In this document: piece after piece, positions 1 through 25,885 of the stretch
Position numbering within the stretch: the stretch's first letter is position 1
How the letters are laid out: each line of letters begins with the position of its first letter
Notes under the pieces: model-generated
What the model was told of the DNA's origin: nothing
Databases searched by the model: none
Seen by the model: only the letters and a program-made list of their open reading frames with translations
Position numbers and translations under genes: made by a program
Origin: Rathayibacter oskolensis
GTDB taxonomy: Bacteria > Actinomycetota > Actinomycetes > Actinomycetales > Microbacteriaceae
Length of the DNA: 64,000 bases
Direction: 5' to 3'
Assembly: GCF_900177245.1 (NCBI RefSeq)
Contig: NZ_FXBM01000001.1
Coordinates: 1,550,001-1,614,000 of the forward strand

Positions 1-468
1 CTCGCGGCGGATCCTGGCCCGGAGGACCTCCTCGACCTCCGCGTCGTCGAGCGGGAGCAGCCACTCGGGCGCCAGCGTGTGCCAGACGAGCGGATGTCCC
101 TTCACCCGCACCCCCCGCTCGGCGAACCACTCCGCCGTCTTCTTCAGGCGTGCCGTCTCGGGACGCCCCCGTTCGGGCTCGAACCCGCGCCAGTAGAAGG
201 GCAGCGTCACCGTGTTGAACACCTCCAGCCACGCGTCCGCGAGCATCCGGGGGTCGGACGAGAGCCGGCCGCCGAAGAACTGCGACGCGTCGCCGCCGGT
301 GGCCAGCGGAGGGCCTCCCAGCCAGTCGACGAAGTCGAATCCGATGTTGCCGAAGCCGAACGCGTGAGCGAGCTGCGTCGTCGTCACGGCCACGTCCGGC
401 ACGGGCCGGCCCTGGTCGTCGACGACGAGGACGTCCGTCGTGAGGGTGCGATGGCAGAGATCAGGCAC
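1..468 (-). CDS. GH10 endo-1,4-beta-xylanase-like glycosidase (partial, C-terminus outside window)
   Basis: The 156 codons visible run off the left edge. They match the N-terminal half of glycoside hydrolase family 10, which cleaves beta-1,4-xylan or xylo-oligosaccharides. The family hallmark GHPLVWH is at residues 124-130, preceded by FNTVTLPFYW (84-93), the equivalent of the usual FNxVTxENxxKW. Residues 12-40 look like the beta-strand lead-in seen in GH10 proteins that lack a secretion signal. There is no signal peptide, so it probably acts in the cytoplasm on imported oligosaccharides. The GTG start at 468 has GGAGG seven bases upstream. The catalytic acid/base and nucleophile glutamates lie beyond the window. 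It is the last visible gene of the transporter-led operon. Confidence 0.82.
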   Translation of the reverse strand, partial: MPDLCHRTLTTDVLVVDDQGRPVPDVAVTTTQLAHAFGFGNIGFDFVDWLGGPPLATGGDASQFFGGRLSSDPRMLADAWLEVFNTVTLPFYWRGFEPERGRPETARLKKTAEWFAERGVRVKGHPLVWHTLAPEWLLPLDDAEVEEVLRARIRRE

Positions 469-510
469 GGATGAACCTCCGCGTCGTCGCGTCGTGCGGC
501 GGAGCGACCG

Positions 511-879
511 TCATCGTTCGCCCCTCGCCCCGGGGTACCAGTCCTCGAGCGTGTTCTCGGTGATCGCGATGAACACGTCGTCCGGGCGCACCCCCTCCGC
601 CTCGAGCCGCCGGGCCACGGCCTCGAACATCGCCGACTTCGCCTCCTGGTCGTACATGCGGACCATCAGCACGCGGACGTAGACCACGTCCCGCCGGTCC
701 CCGCCGAGGTAGTGGGCGTCGGCGATGATGTGGTCGGCGGGCAGGGGGTGGATGACCTGGAAGCGGTCCTCCGCATCCATGCCCAGGCCTTCGACGAGAC
801 CGGCGTTGACGGCCTCCGCGTAGGCGAACCTCTTCTCCACCGAGACGGTGTCGGCTACTTCAATGGTGACGAGAGGCAT
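511..879 (-). CDS. Tautomerase-superfamily protein (4-oxalocrotonate tautomerase-like fold)
   Basis: A 122-residue protein that begins Met-Pro; the proline becomes the N-terminal catalytic base after Met removal, the hallmark of the tautomerase superfamily. The order of motifs (DRFQVI near residue 43, a VYVRV strand, GVRPDDVFI and a terminal EN..DWY) fits the longer, about 120-130 residue tautomerases rather than the 62-residue 4-OT type. Its ATG overlaps the TGA of the upstream oxidoreductase gene by one base (TGATG), so translation is coupled. Context suggests it interconverts keto/enol forms of an intermediate made by the neighbouring oxidoreductases; the substrate is unknown. Confidence 0.8.
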   Translation of the reverse strand: MPLVTIEVADTVSVEKRFAYAEAVNAGLVEGLGMDAEDRFQVIHPLPADHIIADAHYLGGDRRDVVYVRVLMVRMYDQEAKSAMFEAVARRLEAEGVRPDDVFIAITENTLEDWYPGARGER

Positions 880-1952
880 CAGGCCCACGCTTCCTTGCTC
901 ACGCGCACATCGGCGCTGGTTCGTACGGACTCCTCGATCGCGAGACCGAGGAGGTGGTCTTGGCAGGCTTCCGCGAGCGGGTACGGCTCCGGCCCGGCGT
1001 CGCGGGCCCACCGCCCCGTCGCCTCGAGGAAGTCGGCGACGGCGAGGTCGTCCTCGGAGAGTCGTGTGCCGATCCAGGCGTTCCTCCAGACGAACCGGCC
1101 CTCGAAGGAGGCGGACACCACTTCGTTGCCCTCGAGGTTCATGTCGACGCCGGTGCGGCGGTAGGAGATCGGGGAGACGACGACTCCCTCGTCGGTGAGG
1201 TGCGTGACGGTGTCGTCGGAGATCTCGCCCAGCGAGCCCCTGATGACGATCCGCCGGCTCAGCAGCGGATTCCACCACTGGTTGTCCACGAAGTCGTAGA
1301 GGCCCATCCGACCGTCGCCGAAGTCGAGCGTGCCGATGGTGGTGGTGCGCGGTTCCGGTGTCGGGTCCTCGCGCCAGCCGTCGAAGGTCAGCGGGTCGGC
1401 CTGGGGAGCGGTGAAGGCGCGTGCGCTCACGACGGCCTCCGCCATGCCTGCTCCGAGGAACCCGCGCATCAGGCTGGTCGCGTGGTAGAGGTGCGTGGAG
1501 GCCACCTGAACGGCTGTCGGAGCACCGATGGCGCCGCTGTCGATCACCGACTTCCGTGCCGCGTGACCCGGCATCAGCATGTACTGCTCCGCCACCTGCA
1601 CGCGGCCCGACGAGCCGACGGCCGACCACAGCTCGCGCAGCCCGTCGGCCGTCGGCGCGGGCGGAGTCTCGGCGAGCACCGGGATCCCGAGCTCCACGAG
1701 GCGAGTGGTGACGGTCGGCATCGACGACCACGAGACGGCGGCGATCACGAAGTCCGGACGGAGGGCGAGCGCCTCCTCCAGGGTCCGGACGACAGGAGCG
1801 TCCCATCTCGCAGACATCCGCGCCTCGGCCTCGGCGGAGTTCGCCACCACGGCGACCGCCTGCAGCCTCGCGGGCGAAGCGTTCGCCAGGCGGAGGTAGA
1901 ACTCCGACCGCCACCCCGTCCCCACTACAGCGAACTTCACGGGCTCAGTCAT
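879..1952 (-). CDS. Gfo/Idh/MocA-family oxidoreductase
   Basis: A 357-residue NAD(P)-dependent oxidoreductase of the Gfo/Idh/MocA family, which oxidises or reduces sugars and cyclitols. The N-terminal Rossmann fold carries GTGWRS at residues 11-16. Where most members have EKP with a catalytic lysine, this protein has ETPP (Glu95-Thr96-Pro97), so the lysine is absent. The C-terminal part looks like the usual substrate-binding sheet. The ATG at 1952 follows AGAAGG at a good distance. It is separated from the upstream SDR gene by 54 bases and overlaps the tautomerase gene by one base. The role in sugar catabolism is inferred from the operon. Confidence 0.85.
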   Translation of the reverse strand: MTEPVKFAVVGTGWRSEFYLRLANASPARLQAVAVVANSAEAEARMSARWDAPVVRTLEEALALRPDFVIAAVSWSSMPTVTTRLVELGIPVLAETPPAPTADGLRELWSAVGSSGRVQVAEQYMLMPGHAARKSVIDSGAIGAPTAVQVASTHLYHATSLMRGFLGAGMAEAVVSARAFTAPQADPLTFDGWREDPTPEPRTTTIGTLDFGDGRMGLYDFVDNQWWNPLLSRRIVIRGSLGEISDDTVTHLTDEGVVVSPISYRRTGVDMNLEGNEVVSASFEGRFVWRNAWIGTRLSEDDLAVADFLEATGRWARDAGPEPYPLAEACQDHLLGLAIEESVRTSADVRVSKEAWA

Positions 1953-2006
1953 CTCGGACCTTCTCTTTCGTGGACGGGATCGTGCAGGGGTACGGAGAAC
2001 GGGTGG

Positions 2007-2762
2007 TCATATCTGACTCATCCCGCCGTCGACGACGAGTTCGGCGCCGGCGACGAAGCTGGACTCGTCGCTCGCGAGGAAGAGGACCGCTGCGGCGACC
2101 TCCTCGGGCCGGCCGATGCGCCCCACCGGTATCTGCGAGGCGACCGCCTGCTCGACGGCGACGGAGCCTCCGGTGAACCTGTCGAAGCCGGCGGTCGCGA
2201 TCGGGCCGGGACTCACCGCGTTGGCGCGGATGCGACGGTCGGCGAGCTCTGCGGTCAGCGTGCGCGCCAGGGAGCGCACGGCGGCCTTGGTCGCGTTGTA
2301 GACGGCGTGTCCCGCACCGCCGTTGTGCGCGGCGATCGAGGAGACGAGGACGATGCGCCCGTCGTCCGCCATCAGCGGGACGATGGCGCGGGAGGTCAGG
2401 AACGCCCCGCGGAAGTTCAGATCGCTCACGTGGTCGAACATCTCCGGCGTCGTGTCGACGATCGGCGTCGCCTCGACGTCCCGTCCCGCGTTCACGACGA
2501 GGATGTCGACTCCGCGACCGTCCTCGCCGACGGCCCGCGCCAGCGACTCCAGATGCTCGAGCCGCGAGCCGTCTCCGACCACGGTGCGCACGGAGCCGTC
2601 GGTCTCGCGACGGAGCGCCTCCGCGCGCTCCGCACTGGTACCCGTCGCGATGACGTCGGCCCCCTCAGCGACCAGGCGGAGTACGACGGCCCGACCGATC
2701 CCGGCGGTACCGGCGGTGACGACGGCCAGCTTCCCACTCAGGCTCCCGCTCGCCGCGGTCAC
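2007..2762 (-). CDS. Short-chain dehydrogenase/reductase (classical SDR)
   Basis: A 251-residue classical SDR. The cofactor loop TAGTAGIG is at residues 16-23, NAG at 91-93, the catalytic serine at 141-142 and the YxxxK pair at Tyr155 and Lys159, so the active site is complete. The C-terminal GAELVVDGG stretch is typical of FabG-like and sugar-alcohol SDRs. The GTG start overlaps the permease stop by four bases (GTGA), which fixes the start and shows translational coupling. In this operon it probably oxidises an imported sugar or its lactone; the substrate cannot be read from sequence. Confidence 0.88.
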   Translation of the reverse strand: MTAASGSLSGKLAVVTAGTAGIGRAVVLRLVAEGADVIATGTSAERAEALRRETDGSVRTVVGDGSRLEHLESLARAVGEDGRGVDILVVNAGRDVEATPIVDTTPEMFDHVSDLNFRGAFLTSRAIVPLMADDGRIVLVSSIAAHNGGAGHAVYNATKAAVRSLARTLTAELADRRIRANAVSPGPIATAGFDRFTGGSVAVEQAVASQIPVGRIGRPEEVAAAVLFLASDESSFVAGAELVVDGGMSQI

Positions 2763-3547
2763 TTGAGCGCTCCGGCGGCCAGGCCGCGCTCGAACGAGCG
2801 CTGGAGGAGGAGGTAGGCGACGATGACCGGCACAGCGGTGATCACCGCTGCGGCCAGGACGCCGGTCTGGTCGTTCGTGTACTGGCTGGTGAAGAACGAG
2901 GGCAGGAGCGTGACGACCTGCTTGTCCGGGTCGTTGAGCATGAGCAGCGGGAGGAGGAACGCGTTCCAGCTGTTGATCAGCGTGAGCACCACGATCGCGC
3001 CGGCGATCGGCCGGGTCAGCGGCAGGACGATGTACCAGAAGACCTTCCCGATGCCCGCTCCGTCGACTCGCCCTGCGTCCATCAGCTCCGAGGGGATCCC
3101 GGCGAAGAAGCTCCGCGCGAGCAGGACCGTGAAGGGGATCTGGAGAGCGGCCAGCGGCAGGATCACCGCGATGAGCTCGTTGTACACGTCGAGCGTCGAC
3201 GCCGTGACGAACAGGGGCGTCAGCAGCACCGCCTCCGGCATCGTCAGAGCGGCGATCAGGAGCCAGAACCACACCTCCTTGCCGCGGATGCGCAGCTTGG
3301 CGAACCCGAAGGCGGCGAGCATGGTGCAGACGTAGACCAGCGCGACGGTGGAGGCCGCCACGATGATCGAGTTCCGGAAGTAGACGGGGACCACACCGGT
3401 CGCGAAGACCTTGACGTAGTTTCCCCAGCCCTGTCCGGCCAGCGAGCCCTGGACCATCGCCACGAGGGCGAAGAGGTAGGGGATGACGATGACGGTCGCG
3501 AGCAGCTGCACGCCGATGCGGGAGCGGATCGATCGGAGTTCGAACAC
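2759..3547 (-). CDS. Carbohydrate ABC transporter permease (MalG type)
   Basis: A 262-residue inner-membrane permease with about six hydrophobic segments. The EAA loop that contacts the ATPase is at residues 153-176 (core DAGRVDGAG, ending IVLP). It pairs with the MalF-type permease just upstream (7-base gap) and the binding lipoprotein further up. No ATPase gene is in the window; sugar importers of this CUT1 class commonly borrow a shared MsiK-type ATPase encoded elsewhere, and that is inferred here. The GTG start at 3547 has an AGG-containing weak ribosome site. Confidence 0.92.
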   Translation of the reverse strand: MFELRSIRSRIGVQLLATVIVIPYLFALVAMVQGSLAGQGWGNYVKVFATGVVPVYFRNSIIVAASTVALVYVCTMLAAFGFAKLRIRGKEVWFWLLIAALTMPEAVLLTPLFVTASTLDVYNELIAVILPLAALQIPFTVLLARSFFAGIPSELMDAGRVDGAGIGKVFWYIVLPLTRPIAGAIVVLTLINSWNAFLLPLLMLNDPDKQVVTLLPSFFTSQYTNDQTGVLAAAVITAVPVIVAYLLLQRSFERGLAAGALK

Positions 3548-3554
3548 GACGGCC

Positions 3555-4508
3555 TCAGCTCTCGTCGGCGCGGCGCCGGAGGTTCATGAGCACTCCGCCA
3601 CCGACCGCGAGGACGAGGAGAGCGATCGAGATGGCGGCGGCGTATCCGAAGTGCTTCTCGGCGACCATCGTCTGGTAGATGTACGTGCCCAGGAACTCGG
3701 TCGCGTGATTCGGACCGCCCTTGGTCACGAGGTAGGGCACGTCGAAGGTCTTGAGCGCCCCGATGATGCCCAGCGTGGCGAGAGCGATCGTGGTGCCCTT
3801 GCACATCGGCCAGACGATCGAGACGAGCGAGCGGAAGTTGCTCGCACCGTCGATGCGGGCCGCCTCGAGGACCTCCGGCTCGATCTGGGCCATCGCGGCG
3901 TAGAAGAGGATGAACGTGAGTCCGGTCCACTGCCAGACGGTGATCGCCATGACGACGGGCATCGCGGTCGCCGGATCCGCGAGCCAGGGATGGGCGAGAT
4001 CGCCCAGTCCCACGGTGCGCAGGATCGAGTTGAACTGGCCTTCGACATCGAAGATCGCTCGGAAGACCGGGGCCATGGACGCCGGCGCGAGGACGGTCGG
4101 CACGAAGATCAGCACCTTGTAGAGAGGCGCGAGACGGATCCTCGAGTGCATGATCGCCGCGAAGGTGAAGCCGATCGCCGTCTGCACTGCGAAGGTGACC
4201 ACGAAGAAGATCGCCGTGTGCCAGATCGCGCGCCAGAAGACGTCGTCCTGGAACATCTGCACGAAGTTGGCCGCGCCCACCGACTCCGACGGGCTGAGGA
4301 TGAATCCGTTCCAGTCGAGGGTCGAGACGTAGCCGGTGTAGCCGATCGCGAAGTAGATCATGCCCAGCACCAGGATGATCGCCGGGAGGATCCAGATCAT
4401 CCCGGGGCCGAAGATCACCCTCTTCCGCGGTCGCCCCGGGGAGGGCTCGACGCCTCGAGCGGCGCTGTCGGGCGCTCCCGCGCCGGATCTCGCGATGGCC
4501 GTTGTCAT
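3555..4508 (-). CDS. Carbohydrate ABC transporter permease (MalF type)
   Basis: A 317-residue permease with about six transmembrane segments and an EAA loop at residues 211-233 (core EAARIDGAS). The N-terminal 30 residues are polar and cytoplasmic. ATG 4508 was chosen because GGAGC lies six bases before it; an in-frame ATG at 4565 would start inside the large hairpin at 4531-4581 and is unlikely. It forms the CUT1 translocation pore with the MalG-type partner and serves the binding lipoprotein upstream. Confidence 0.92.
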   Translation of the reverse strand: MTTAIARSGAGAPDSAARGVEPSPGRPRKRVIFGPGMIWILPAIILVLGMIYFAIGYTGYVSTLDWNGFILSPSESVGAANFVQMFQDDVFWRAIWHTAIFFVVTFAVQTAIGFTFAAIMHSRIRLAPLYKVLIFVPTVLAPASMAPVFRAIFDVEGQFNSILRTVGLGDLAHPWLADPATAMPVVMAITVWQWTGLTFILFYAAMAQIEPEVLEAARIDGASNFRSLVSIVWPMCKGTTIALATLGIIGALKTFDVPYLVTKGGPNHATEFLGTYIYQTMVAEKHFGYAAAISIALLVLAVGGGVLMNLRRRADES

Positions 4509-4530
4509 GTCAGCTCCATTGCCTGATGCC

Positions 4531-4581
4531 GTGCCGTGGGTGGTCCGCTCGGACGTGATCCGCACGGACCACCCACGGCAC
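4531..4581 (-). terminator. Long intergenic hairpin between binding-protein and permease genes
   Basis: GTGCCGTGGGTGGTCCG at 4531-4547 is the exact reverse complement of 4565-4581: a perfect 17-bp stem with a 17-base loop. It fills most of the 83-base gap between the stop of the binding-protein gene and the permease start. There is no T-run. Such hairpins after binding-protein genes usually act as partial terminators or 3' stabilisers that keep the binding protein more abundant than the permeases. That role is inferred. Confidence 0.75.
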
Positions 4582-4591
4582 GCGGTGGGTC

Positions 4592-5956
4592 TTACTTCTG
4601 GGCGTCCGAGACGGACTGCAGGCCCTCGAGGGCCTCATCGACGGTCCTGTCACCGGAGGCGACGCCGATGAGCGCGTCCCGGAAGGCCGTGTTGAGATCG
4701 GCGCTGACCGTCGCGAAGCGGGGGTCGGTGGCCTCGCTGGCCGTCGCCGTGTACTCCTTGAGCGCGTCGAGCTGAGCATCCGGGGCGACGAGGTCGATGC
4801 TGTCCCAGTCGGGCTGCACTCCCGTCAGAGACGGGATGTCGTTCAGGGTGTTCGCTACCGCCGTCTGGCCGGCCTCGGACGTCGTCAGCCACACCGCGAA
4901 GGTCGTGGCCGCTGCCTGCGCGTCCGACTTCGTGCTCACCGCGAGTCCGTAGTCGGCGTCGCCGAACATCTCGCCGACGTTCCCGGTGCCCGCGACGTCG
5001 GGGAACTGGATCGGGACCATCGTGAACGGCTCGGGGTTCGCCACGCCTGCGGCCTCCATGGCCGTGACCATCGCGTCGCGCACGGTGTACTGCGTGTACC
5101 AGCTGCCCATCATGATCATCGCGTACTTCTCGGACATGAAGGCGTTGTTCGCGTCGGGGTACTGCTGCAGCCCGATCGCCCCCTCCTGCATGATGCCGTC
5201 GTCGAAGAGGCTCTTCCAGATCTCCATCCCCTGCTCGAAAGCAGGATCCGTGTAGTCCATCTCGCCGAGGGAGGCCTTCGCGTAGGCGCCCGGCTCGATG
5301 TTCTGCATGATCGCCTCGAAGGTGTCCATGTCGAACGCCCACTGACCGGCGCCCTGGACGAAGCATCCCTTGCCTGCGGCCTCCAGGGCCTGGCACGCCT
5401 GCAGCCACTCGTCGTAGGTGGTGGGCGCCGTCACGCCGACCTCGTCGAGCATGTCCTGGTTGACCCAGATGCTCCCGGAGTAGACGGCACCTGCCGAGAG
5501 GCCGACGACCTTGTCGTCGACGGCGAGGCCCTCGACGCCCGACGCCGCGAGCTTGTCCTTCCAGTCCGACCCCAGCTCCGCCTCGACAGCGGGAGCGAGA
5601 TCGATGGCACCCGCCTGGAACGTCTCCACTCCGCCGTTGGCCGAGCCCGGTGCGACGTTGAACACGTCCGGGCCGTCCGCGGAGGTGATCGCCGGGCCGA
5701 GGACCGAGTCGTAGCTGTCGATCGGCTTCGAGACGAACTCCACCTCGATGTCCGGGTACTCCTCGTTGAACGAGGCGATGAGCTTGTCCGCCAGCGGCTT
5801 GTCCGGCGTCCACCCCCACCAGGTGATCGATCCCTCTGTGGCGGAGCCGGGATCGCTCGTGCCTCCTCCACCGCTGCAGGCCGCGAGCGACACCGCCAGG
5901 ATGCCGGCCGCGACCATCGCGAGACCGCCTTGCCGTCCGAACGTCTTCTTCGACAT
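4592..5956 (-). CDS. Extracellular sugar-binding lipoprotein of an ABC importer (CUT1 family)
   Basis: A 454-residue solute-binding protein. The start at 5956 is preceded by GGAGGAG at seven bases; an earlier ATG at 5998 would only add a poor leader. The signal is lipoprotein type: basic MSKKTFGRQG, a hydrophobic core and lipobox LAAC with the lipidated Cys27, followed by a glycine/serine linker. The body opens with ITWWGWTPDKP (near residue 40) and shows the usual two-lobe pattern of family 1 sugar-binding proteins. It is the first gene of the operon, divergent from the LacI regulator. The ligand is probably a plant-derived oligosaccharide, given the GH10 enzyme downstream. Confidence 0.93.
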   Translation of the reverse strand: MSKKTFGRQGGLAMVAAGILAVSLAACSGGGGTSDPGSATEGSITWWGWTPDKPLADKLIASFNEEYPDIEVEFVSKPIDSYDSVLGPAITSADGPDVFNVAPGSANGGVETFQAGAIDLAPAVEAELGSDWKDKLAASGVEGLAVDDKVVGLSAGAVYSGSIWVNQDMLDEVGVTAPTTYDEWLQACQALEAAGKGCFVQGAGQWAFDMDTFEAIMQNIEPGAYAKASLGEMDYTDPAFEQGMEIWKSLFDDGIMQEGAIGLQQYPDANNAFMSEKYAMIMMGSWYTQYTVRDAMVTAMEAAGVANPEPFTMVPIQFPDVAGTGNVGEMFGDADYGLAVSTKSDAQAAATTFAVWLTTSEAGQTAVANTLNDIPSLTGVQPDWDSIDLVAPDAQLDALKEYTATASEATDPRFATVSADLNTAFRDALIGVASGDRTVDEALEGLQSVSDAQK

Positions 5957-6040: not shown

Positions 6041-6091
6041 AACTTACCTGCAAGTTACAACGCAACTTGCGTACGGTTTGCAGTGTAAAGT
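6041..6091. promoter_or_regulatory. Divergent operator/promoter region for the sugar operon and its LacI regulator
   Basis: The 187-base divergent gap holds AACTT (6041-6045), AAGTT (6052-6056) and AACTT (6064-6068) about 11-12 bases apart. They form GCAAGTT-N7-AACTTGC (6050-6070), overlapping a perfect palindrome ACGCAACTTGCGT (6060-6072). Minus-10-like hexamers flank the array: TAAGTT reading left (complement of 6041-6046) and TAAAGT reading right (6086-6091). No convincing -35 boxes were found. This is the expected binding site for the adjacent LacI-family protein, which would then control both its own gene and the operon. Confidence 0.55.
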
Positions 6092-6143: not shown

Positions 6144-7148
6144 GTGGCTGATTCCGGCGCAACACTCGCGCAGATAGCCGAGGCCGCGGGCGTCTCGATA
6201 CCGACGGTGTCGCGTGTCCTCAACGGCAAGCCCGGCATCTCCCCCCTCAAGCGCAACGAGATCGAGCAGCTGATCGAGGATCTCGGCTACGCCCGGCGCA
6301 AGACGAAGCGCACGGCGTCGCTGATCGACTTCGTGGTCTCCAGCCTCGAGACCCAGTGGGCGACGGAGCTCCTCCGGGGGGCTCAGGCCGAGGCGGCGCG
6401 CGCGGGCGTCGACATGGTGCTCAACGTCACGCACAGCACGCCGGCGGGCGCGCCCGACTGGATCGATCGCATCGCCTCCCGCGGATCGGACGGCATCGTG
6501 CTCGTCGTGTCGGAGTGGACGCCGGACGCGCGGAAGCGACTCGCGAAGCTCAAGCTGCCCGTCGTGGCCATCGACCCGCTGGGGAACGACACCGAGTCGT
6601 TCGCGACCGTCTCAGCGACCGACTGGGTGGGCGGTCGAGAGGCCACCGAGCACCTGCTCGCCCTCGGGCATCGGCGCATCGGGTTCGTCACCGGGCCCAT
6701 GGAGCTCGAGTGCCACCAGGACCGTCTCGACGGGTACATGAGCGCGCTGGGTCGCGCCGATGTCGCGCCGCAGAAGGATCTGGTGCGACACGGCGACTCG
6801 CTGATCAGCGGTGGTCAGAGGTACGGCGGCGAGCTGCTCGACCTTCCGGACCGCCCCACCGCGATCATCAGCGGCTCCGACGAGCAGGCCTACGGTGTCT
6901 ACCTGGCGGCCCGGGATCGCGGCATCCGCATCCCCGAGGACCTGTCGGTCGTCGGCTTCGACGACGTCGATCTCTGCCGGTGGGTCAGTCCGCAGCTGAC
7001 CACCGTCCGCCAGCCGCTCGCGAGCATGGCCTCCGAGGCCACCCGGCTCCTCCTCAAGCTCGCGGCCGGCGAAGCGGTCGACACTCCGACCGTGCGGCTG
7101 GCCTCCGCGCTCATCGTCCGGGAGTCGACGGCGCCCATCGCGTCGTGA
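6144..7148 (+). CDS. LacI-family transcriptional regulator
   Basis: A 334-residue repressor. The N-terminal helix-turn-helix and hinge (residues 8-28, core IAEAAGVSIPTVSRVLNG) are typical of LacI. The rest is a periplasmic-binding-protein-like effector domain with DLSVVGFDDVD near residue 270 and the terminal VRESTAP segment. The GTG start follows AAGGGGGG. It is divergent from the sugar importer operon, so it most likely represses that operon until an imported sugar binds. The effector is not known. Confidence 0.93.
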   Translation: MADSGATLAQIAEAAGVSIPTVSRVLNGKPGISPLKRNEIEQLIEDLGYARRKTKRTASLIDFVVSSLETQWATELLRGAQAEAARAGVDMVLNVTHSTPAGAPDWIDRIASRGSDGIVLVVSEWTPDARKRLAKLKLPVVAIDPLGNDTESFATVSATDWVGGREATEHLLALGHRRIGFVTGPMELECHQDRLDGYMSALGRADVAPQKDLVRHGDSLISGGQRYGGELLDLPDRPTAIISGSDEQAYGVYLAARDRGIRIPEDLSVVGFDDVDLCRWVSPQLTTVRQPLASMASEATRLLLKLAAGEAVDTPTVRLASALIVRESTAPIAS

Positions 7149-25800: not shown

Positions 25801-25885
25801 GTCCGGGTGGCGGAAATGGCAGACGCGCTAGCTTGAGGTGCTAGTGCCCGTATAGGGCGTGGGGGTTCAAGTCCCCCCTCGGACA
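25801..25885 (+). tRNA. tRNA-Leu (anticodon GAG)
   Basis: An 85-base class II tRNA. The acceptor stem GTCCGGG pairs with CTCGGAC (25878-25884) with one G-T pair, discriminator A at 25885. The anticodon stem CTAGC/GCTAG encloses loop TTGAGGT, giving anticodon GAG for CUC codons. A long variable arm follows, and the T arm is GGGGG-TTCAAGT-CCCCC. CCA is not encoded, so it is added afterwards. Confidence 0.97.

What the first reader, a model, noticed from the sequence alone, without database searches (positions are those of the whole stretch)
1..5956. Importer-led operon with an intracellular GH10 enzyme, tautomerase, SDR and Gfo/Idh oxidoreductase
Seen: a binding lipoprotein, two CUT1 permeases, SDR, Gfo/Idh protein, tautomerase and a GH10 protein without signal peptide lie in one minus-strand run with 1-4 base overlaps, divergent from a LacI regulator. 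Known: CUT1 permeases import sugars and GH10 hydrolyses xylan chains. Inferred: imported xylo-oligosaccharides, or a decorated or acidic derivative, are cut inside the cell and further oxidised and tautomerised. The combination of a tautomerase with sugar oxidoreductases is not a standard xylan pathway and may be an undescribed catabolic route.
Basis: partly seen in the sequence, partly recalled or inferred. Interest (0 to 1): 0.72.

Follow-up and report, generated by a model that had tools for sequence, protein, structure and literature searches.

The report
Xylan-fragment importer operon, two unexplained enzymes
This is a real, conserved bacterial operon that seems to import plant-xylan fragments, cut them inside the cell and, in its close relatives, run on into an oxidative pentose pathway; most parts resemble known ones, but a paired oxidoreductase and tautomerase have active sites that match none of the enzymes compared.

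Summary
The gene run is real: lipoprotein, two CUT1 permeases, SDR, Gfo/Idh protein (GFO), tautomerase (TAUT) and a GH10 enzyme cut off by the window end, divergent from LacI. Only two of six junctions overlap. In those 8 the operon continues with aldehyde dehydrogenase, IlvD/Edd dehydratase, Zn-alcohol dehydrogenase and a XylB-like SDR, in 7 also an SMP-30 lactonase: a xylo-oligosaccharide operon feeding a Weimberg-like pentose oxidation, a variant of a known kind. Unexplained: (1) GFO has Thr for the catalytic EKP lysine and, by my register, Thr for the catalytic Asp in 80 of 80 aligned sequences, plus an HxxH motif; (2) TAUT lacks the arginines of malonate semialdehyde decarboxylases, and the 8 genomes with TAUT among 297 sampled all have GFO; (3) no known 2-keto-3-deoxypentonate dehydratase is in the operon, and 2 of 16 genomes have neither a strong XylX-like protein nor a second DHDPS. 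TAUT is probably not that dehydratase: one MAG has TAUT without IlvD/Edd. The GFO/TAUT chemistry is unknown. The window itself ends inside GH10.

The parts
4592..5956 (-). Sugar-binding lipoprotein (SBP_bac_1)
   Evidence: PF01547 E 9.9e-23; 92.5% identical to L005
4506..4591 (-). Intercistronic hairpin region between binding protein and permease A (its last 3 bases are the permease start codon)
   Evidence: MFE -54 kcal/mol, z -6.62, 0 of 200 shuffles; stable stems in the 12 relatives whose gap was folded; in L014 and L016 my gene calls leave no gap
3555..4508 (-). CUT1 permease A
   Evidence: PF00528 E 4.7e-17, scanned without the start codon
2759..3547 (-). CUT1 permease B
   Evidence: PF00528 E 1.1e-16
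2007..2762 (-). SDRa, classical short-chain dehydrogenase with YxxxK
   Evidence: PF13561 E 9.3e-61; no curated cut-off reached among the 25 of 231 NCBIfam matches shown
879..1952 (-). GFO, Gfo/Idh-fold protein with ETP in place of EKP
   Evidence: PF01408; T96, T153, H154, H157 identical in 80 of 80 aligned sequences, the window and 79 loci; AlphaFold pLDDT 93.3
511..879 (-). TAUT, malonate-semialdehyde-decarboxylase-like tautomerase
   Evidence: PF14552 E 5.6e-18; FG41 MSAD 3mjz E 6.7e-15; Pro1 and Asp37 kept, the Arg75 position is Tyr in 10 of 10
1..468 (-). GH10 enzyme, N-terminal 156 aa only, gene runs off the window
   Evidence: PF00331 E 9.4e-6; 8b73 E 1.4e-24
6061..6071 (+). Palindromic operator-like site CGCAACTTGCG in the divergent promoter
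   Evidence: 1 match in 64 kb, expected 0.01; 6 of 7 matches in the 141 loci lie in the LacI-SBP gap of 5 loci, 9 of 14 relatives have none
6144..7148 (+). LacI-family regulator
   Evidence: PF00356, PF13377; homolog beside the operon in all 10 complete-set loci

Best explanation
A LacI-controlled operon for xylan fragments. The lipoprotein and CUT1 permeases import xylo-oligosaccharides (ATPase encoded elsewhere, inferred). Cytoplasmic GH10, helped in some related loci by GH3 or a GH120-type enzyme, releases pentose. In relatives the operon runs on with a XylB-like SDR (D-xylose to lactone), SMP-30 lactonase, IlvD/Edd dehydratase (to 2-keto-3-deoxypentonate) and an alpha-ketoglutarate-semialdehyde-type dehydrogenase; I infer that the window's operon does too. 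SDRa, GFO and TAUT form a separate module tied to importer and glycosidase. My best guess is that GFO uses NAD in transient oxidation and elimination on a xylosyl or xylose unit, as RgNanOx does on sialic acid, and that TAUT equilibrates the keto/enol intermediate. Shown: gene content, order, conservation, residues. Inferred: substrate and pathway. Guessed: the GFO/TAUT reaction.
For: 10 of 80 GFO loci carry LacI, SBP, both permeases, SDRa, GFO, TAUT and GH10; 8 have GFO-TAUT-GH10 in a row, and these have ALDH, IlvD/Edd, Zn-ADH and SDRb downstream in 8 of 8 and SMP-30 in 7 of 8 (cluster; families named on representatives). Closest relative L005 (Rathayibacter) is 83-94% identical protein by protein. 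GH10 of L005 is nearest to xylanase AcXyn10A; INE and a second [TS]E motif are in 16 of 16 relatives. GH3, a GH120-type gene, AXE1 and xylose isomerase occur in related loci. SDRb of L005 scores 322.5 bits on D-xylose 1-dehydrogenase NF053674 (cut-off 400); IlvD/Edd 766.4 on L-arabinonate dehydratase (cut-off 882). ALDH homologs lie within 1.3 kb of DHDPS-family genes six times in G002, G003, G005, G012. TAUT is in 8 and GFO in 51 of the same 297 genomes, 8 of 8 within the GFO set (P 4.7e-7; without the centre genome G002, 7 of 7, P 2.7e-6; kinship not corrected).
Against: No equivalog cut-off is reached by SDRb, IlvD/Edd or ALDH (best 25 shown for SDRb and ALDH). No 2-keto-3-deoxypentonate dehydratase in the operon. 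GFO often stands without any other gene of this operon nearby, and one importer locus carries an alpha-L-rhamnosidase (L131). A TAUT paralog sits in an operon with a GH1 beta-glucosidase (L105). The complete set is patchy: of 297 genomes of the order only the centre genome itself, G002, showed a TAUT better than 1e-60. No expression or ligand data; the window ends inside GH10.
Confidence: 0.6

Rival explanations
1. TAUT is the missing 2-keto-3-deoxypentonate dehydratase: Pro1 chemistry removes water from C4 and tautomerises to alpha-ketoglutarate semialdehyde, replacing XylX or KdpD.
For: Chemistry fits the superfamily (general knowledge). G004 and G011 have neither a strong XylX-like FAH nor a second DHDPS; G004 is a TAUT genome. 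A Micromonosporaceae locus has GFO-LacI-IlvD/Edd-FAH in a row and no TAUT match in the fetched stretch.
Against: G009 has a TAUT 80% identical to the window's but no IlvD/Edd or ALDH match at the thresholds used (a MAG, may be incomplete). G011 shows the same gap and has no TAUT in its operon. FAH-family proteins occur in 13 of 13 genomes, so a divergent dehydratase is not excluded. 4 of 16 TAUT genomes searched lack IlvD/Edd. A TAUT paralog sits in a beta-glucosidase operon.
Confidence: 0.12
2. No dehydratase is needed: Zn-ADH oxidises C5 of 2-keto-3-deoxypentonate, ALDH makes 4-hydroxy-2-oxoglutarate, and an aldolase gives pyruvate and glyoxylate.
For: Zn-ADH, SDRb and IlvD/Edd occur together in the 8 complete loci, in L012, L020 and L024, and in L100-L102.
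Against: No candidate aldolase is uniformly present: PF01081 in 12 of 16 genomes; PF03328 over cut-off in 14 of 16, but partly only as short marginal matches. Zn-ADH function unassigned.
Confidence: 0.1
3. The imported ligand is another plant glycoside (saponin, rhamnose- or glucose-bearing xyloside) and GH10 acts on that.
For: alpha-L-rhamnosidase beside the importer in L131; GH5-like genes in L104 and GH1 in L105 beside TAUT paralogs.
Against: GH10 is nearest to a xylanase; GH120-type, GH3, AXE1 and xylose isomerase genes beside GFO or GH10 in related loci.
Confidence: 0.12
4. GFO is a dead or ordinary NAD dehydrogenase and TAUT a bystander.
For: The catalytic Lys is lost, and by my register the Asp; GFO occurs without the others in many genomes.
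Against: E95, T96, P97, H154, Y156 and H157 are the same in 80 of 80 aligned sequences and in three homologs at 28-32% identity, which speaks for selection.
Confidence: 0.1

Closest known systems
Weimberg (Route II) oxidative pentose pathway, as described in PMC6336799
   Same: XylB-like SDR, SMP-30 lactonase, IlvD/Edd dehydratase and a semialdehyde-dehydrogenase-type ALDH in relatives
   Different: No FAH- or DHDPS-type dehydratase found in the operon; extra SDRa, GFO, TAUT, Zn-ADH; fed by oligosaccharide import and GH10
Malonate semialdehyde decarboxylase (Pp and FG41 MSAD)
   Same: Tautomerase_2 family, Pro1, Asp37, Trp near 114
   Different: Arg73 position is R/K/S, Arg75 position is Tyr in 10 of 10; context is sugar uptake
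Gfo/Idh/MocA dehydrogenases
   Same: Predicted fold; His of the K-D-H triad
   Different: Lys to Thr; Asp position Thr (Gly or Ala in three distant homologs); HxYH in all aligned
RgNanOx / E. coli YjhC (PMC7535918)
   Same: HxxH motif; transporter-linked
   Different: RgNanOx keeps the EKP lysine; other substrate
GH188 NAD-dependent sulfoquinovosidases (8qc2, 8qc5; the family number is recalled)
   Same: Best Foldseek matches by E-value, TM 0.67-0.70 for the sulfoquinovosidase chains among the top 8
   Different: 15-17% identity; 8qc2 reads EKP in the alignment
AcXyn10A (8b73)
   Same: Full-length homolog of the GH10 of L005
   Different: From Acetivibrio clariflavus; its gene context was not compared

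Membership tests
Weimberg pathway | D-xylose 1-dehydrogenase | tested here: inconclusive
   Relative L005 SDRb 322.5 bits on NF053674, cut-off 400
Weimberg pathway | Lactonase | tested here: met
   In relatives: PF08450 on L014 and L024, same cluster in 7 of 8 complete loci; not in L005
Weimberg pathway | Pentonate dehydratase | tested here: met
   In relatives: IlvD/Edd in 8 of 8 complete loci; nearest PDB entries 8ej0, 5j83, 9evv; family met, substrate not tested
Weimberg pathway | 2-keto-3-deoxypentonate dehydratase (XylX or KdpD) in the cluster | tested here: not met
   None among the genes named in the 8 complete operons; genome-wide, neither a strong XylX-like FAH nor a second DHDPS in 2 of 16; FAH family itself in 13 of 13
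Weimberg pathway | alpha-ketoglutarate semialdehyde dehydrogenase | tested here: inconclusive
   ALDH nearest to 1eyy and 3v4c; homologs beside DHDPS genes; cut-offs not reached
Weimberg pathway | These genes present in the window's own genome | not testable with these tools
   Window ends in GH10; no whole genome held
Malonate semialdehyde decarboxylase | Pro1 and Asp37 | tested here: met
   Same in 10 of 10 sequences; signature from PMC10606566 passages
Malonate semialdehyde decarboxylase | Arg73 and Arg75 (PpMSAD) or Thr72, Gln73, Arg76 (FG41) | tested here: not met
   Position 73 is R/K/S, 75 is Tyr in 10 of 10 (register from the printed alignments)
Gfo/Idh/MocA dehydrogenase | Rossmann domain and Gfo fold | tested here: met
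   PF01408; model pLDDT 93.3, pTM 0.90; PDB matches
Gfo/Idh/MocA dehydrogenase | Catalytic Lys of EKP | tested here: not met
   Thr in 80 of 80; K-D-H role from PMC5969746 passages
Gfo/Idh/MocA dehydrogenase | Catalytic Asp four before His | tested here: not met
   Thr153 in 80 of 80, Gly or Ala in three distant homologs; register set by hand on H157...R163, MAFFT leaves it ambiguous
RgNanOx/YjhC | HxxH motif | tested here: met
   H154 and H157 in 80 of 80
RgNanOx/YjhC | EKP lysine | tested here: not met
   Thr96; Lys-93 in RgNanOx
GH188 NAD-dependent glycosidase | Glycoside cleavage with NAD | not testable with these tools
   Only fold similarity
GH10 | Family profile and catalytic Glu pair | tested here: met
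   PF00331; INE and [TS]E[TNS]TL motifs in 16 of 16 relatives, their catalytic role recalled. The window holds only the N-terminal part, so the Glu pair was not seen there

The most novel reading that the evidence does not exclude
GFO and TAUT form a two-enzyme unit that processes glycosidic sugars by transient NAD-dependent oxidation and Pro1 keto/enol chemistry, without the lysine and aspartate that the Gfo/Idh sugar dehydrogenases compared here use; xylan and beta-glucoside operons recruit versions of it, with VOC plus amidohydrolase as an alternative second half.
Probability: 0.28. Interest if true: 0.75.

Novelty: new variant of a known kind. Interest (0 to 1): 0.5.

Why it matters
It gives an operon-level link between intracellular xylanases and oxidative pentose catabolism in Actinobacteria, exposes a pathway hole that can be assayed directly, and defines a Gfo/Idh clade, with homologs in Bacillota and a spirochaete, whose altered active site predicts different chemistry.

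Tried and rejected
TAUT as simple MSAD: rejected on the arginine test. GFO as canonical dehydrogenase: rejected on the triad. TAUT as pentose-specific dehydratase: weakened by G009 and by a paralog in a beta-glucosidase operon. 'Set not co-conserved': rejected. TAUT in phage records: no match. AraD1-type FAH: 0 of 13 genomes, but no positive control, so weak. FAH as a family: in 13 of 13 genomes, so it cannot decide alone. The plasmid search with IlvD/Edd found 567 records, 40 listed; of the ten regions I opened, two had no annotation, one had an AraD1-family gene beside it, and the other seven showed no FAH-family gene named beside it, two of them a DHDPS-family gene. Aldolase counts decided nothing. 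Literature: no held paper has both 'Weimberg' and 'tautomerase'. Listings seen as titles and abstract starts, none describing this locus: 20 of 92; 15 of 456; 12 of 12; 3 of 3; 10 of 10; 8 of 45; 12 of 166; so searches showed only a part. Papers: PMC6336799 part 1 of 6 and passages; PMC5969746, PMC7535918, PMC5818174, PMC10606566, PMC11966585 and PMC12485897 passages only. Filters: one search dropped hits under 50% query coverage, under 40%; gene maps are from my own scripts and were printed for 36 of 80 loci. L083's gene was missed by the script, so the 80 aligned sequences are the window and 79 of 80 loci; its row in A1 also reads ETP. The genome of L024 (TAUT-bearing) was not among those searched whole.


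Full report
Observation. The minus-strand run at 1-5956 is as described: binding lipoprotein, two CUT1 permeases, SDR, Gfo/Idh protein (GFO), tautomerase (TAUT) and the first 156 residues of a GH10 enzyme, divergent from a LacI regulator. Two of six junctions overlap (4 and 1 bases); the rest are gaps of 7, 42, 54 and 83 bases. The 83-base gap holds a strong hairpin; stable stems were also found in the 12 relatives whose gap was folded. The divergent promoter has the palindrome CGCAACTTGCG, expected 0.01 times in the window; of 7 matches in 2.4 Mb of fetched loci 6 lie in the LacI-SBP gap of 5 loci, but 9 of 14 relatives have no exact match.

Conservation. A scan of one genome for each of 84,980 species with GFO confirmed 124 relatives, of which the best 80 were kept. 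Of these 80, 10 carry LacI, SBP, both permeases, SDRa, GFO, TAUT and GH10; in 8 the order GFO-TAUT-GH10 is contiguous, in 2 (L016, L024) GH10 lies divergently beside LacI and GH3 follows TAUT. Five further importer loci (L012, L013, L020, L029, L031) have, in place of TAUT, a small VOC protein and an amidohydrolase (families read on L012 and L031). The genes beyond LacI in the complete loci share almost no cluster with one another, and the window's own neighbour SDR has no match in those loci except a 32% SDR in L016, which suggests that the operon moves as a unit (inference).

What lies past GH10. In the 8 complete loci the operon goes on: ALDH, IlvD/Edd, Zn-ADH, SDRb in 8 of 8, SMP-30 lactonase in 7 of 8, in L014 with ALDH last. 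SDRb is near D-xylose 1-dehydrogenase and IlvD/Edd near L-arabinonate dehydratase, both below curated equivalog cut-offs. The ALDH is nearest to 1eyy and 3v4c; homologs stand within 1.3 kb of DHDPS-family genes six times in four genomes, as expected for a semialdehyde dehydrogenase. This is the gene content of the Weimberg route described in PMC6336799, except for its dehydratase. For the window itself this extension is inferred from L005, whose proteins are 83-94% identical.

The hole. A XylX-like FAH taken from a Micromonosporaceae locus (GFO-LacI-IlvD/Edd-FAH; its assignment to XylX rests on recalled sequence features and context) has strong matches (56-57%) in 2 of the 16 operon genomes (G010, G105), middling ones (34-39%) in G005 and G189, none in G091, and only matches of E 2e-10 or worse in the other 11. 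FAH-family proteins as such occur in 13 of 13 genomes tested. All 16 have at least one DHDPS; G004, G011 and G105 have only one, presumably DapA. Thus G004 and G011 have neither a strong XylX-like protein nor a second DHDPS. TAUT is a tempting filler, but G009 has TAUT without an IlvD/Edd or ALDH match, and of 16 TAUT genomes searched 12 have IlvD/Edd and 4 do not. G012 and G013, of the VOC type, lack IlvD/Edd as well. So I read SDRa, GFO and TAUT (or VOC plus amidohydrolase) as one module and the oxidative genes as another.

GFO. Residues E95 T96 P97, T153, H154, Y156, H157 and R163 are identical in 80 of 80 aligned sequences; three plasmid-borne homologs at 28-32% identity also read ETP and keep H154, Y156 and H157, with Gly or Ala at 153. 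Described dehydrogenases use Lys (EKP), Asp and His; alanine mutants of each lost activity in one of them, data not shown there (PMC5969746 passages). RgNanOx, which oxidises, eliminates and re-reduces with no net NADH, has HxxH but keeps the lysine (PMC7535918 passages). The model is confident; its best PDB matches are NAD-dependent sulfoquinovosidases at TM 0.67-0.70 and 15-17% identity. The register of T153 against the catalytic Asp is my manual reading.

TAUT. Pro1 and Asp37 are kept, the arginine pair is not. In 297 genomes of the order, TAUT matches (E up to 1e-20) occur 9 times in 8 genomes, GFO (E up to 1e-60) in 51; all 8 are in the 51 (P 4.7e-7; leaving out the centre genome G002, chosen because it has the operon, 7 of 7, P 2.7e-6; kinship not corrected). 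GFO is adjacent in 6 of the 9 copies. Four of these six (G189, G091, G105, G045) use a different transporter and an aldo/keto reductase between permease and GFO (family on L100; 85-94% identical in the other three), and where the contig reaches far enough continue with Zn-ADH, SDRb, IlvD/Edd, GH3 and GH10. Paralogs in L105 and L106 sit with sugar-transporter genes, an aldo/keto reductase and a ROK protein; in L105 a VOC protein and a GH1 beta-glucosidase were also identified.

GFO without TAUT. Twenty further GFO regions were read: one has importer, SDRa and GH10 with an alpha-L-rhamnosidase (L131), one GH3 and a GH5-like gene (L124); in 11 of 20 GFO is the only match. Actinomycetaceae loci L027, L028 and L077 have GFO directly before GH10; in L027 an acetyl-xylan esterase precedes GFO.

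Verdict. An ordinary-looking sugar operon whose oxidative arm is a variant of a known pathway, with a conserved pair of enzymes that none of the families compared explains. I rate the operon reading at 0.6 and the bold GFO/TAUT reading at 0.28.

Noticed in passing
window 4506-4591: Very stable hairpin between binding protein and permease genes; stable stems in the same gap of 12 relatives folded.
   Followed up: partly
L105, L106: TAUT paralogs beside sugar-transporter genes with aldo/keto reductase and a ROK protein; L105 also has a VOC protein and a GH1 beta-glucosidase.
   Followed up: partly
L027, L028, L077: Actinomycetaceae loci with GFO directly before GH10 and no TAUT; acetyl-xylan esterase before GFO in L027, a gene of the GH120-type cluster before GFO in L077.
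   Followed up: partly
L065:9983-14662 (same place as in L120): Micromonosporaceae MAG with GFO, a LacI 54% identical to a LacI of the operon set, IlvD/Edd and a XylX-like FAH in a row.
   Followed up: partly
L131: Importer with GFO, SDRa and GH10 beside an alpha-L-rhamnosidase: the ligand may include rhamnose.
   Followed up: no
L003:11983-13062, L004:11959-12972: Distant ETP-type Gfo proteins in Lachnospira eligens and Treponema saccharophilum, with no xylan operon annotated around them.
   Followed up: no
window 25801-25885: A tRNA gene is the only Rfam match in the window at gathering threshold.
   Followed up: no
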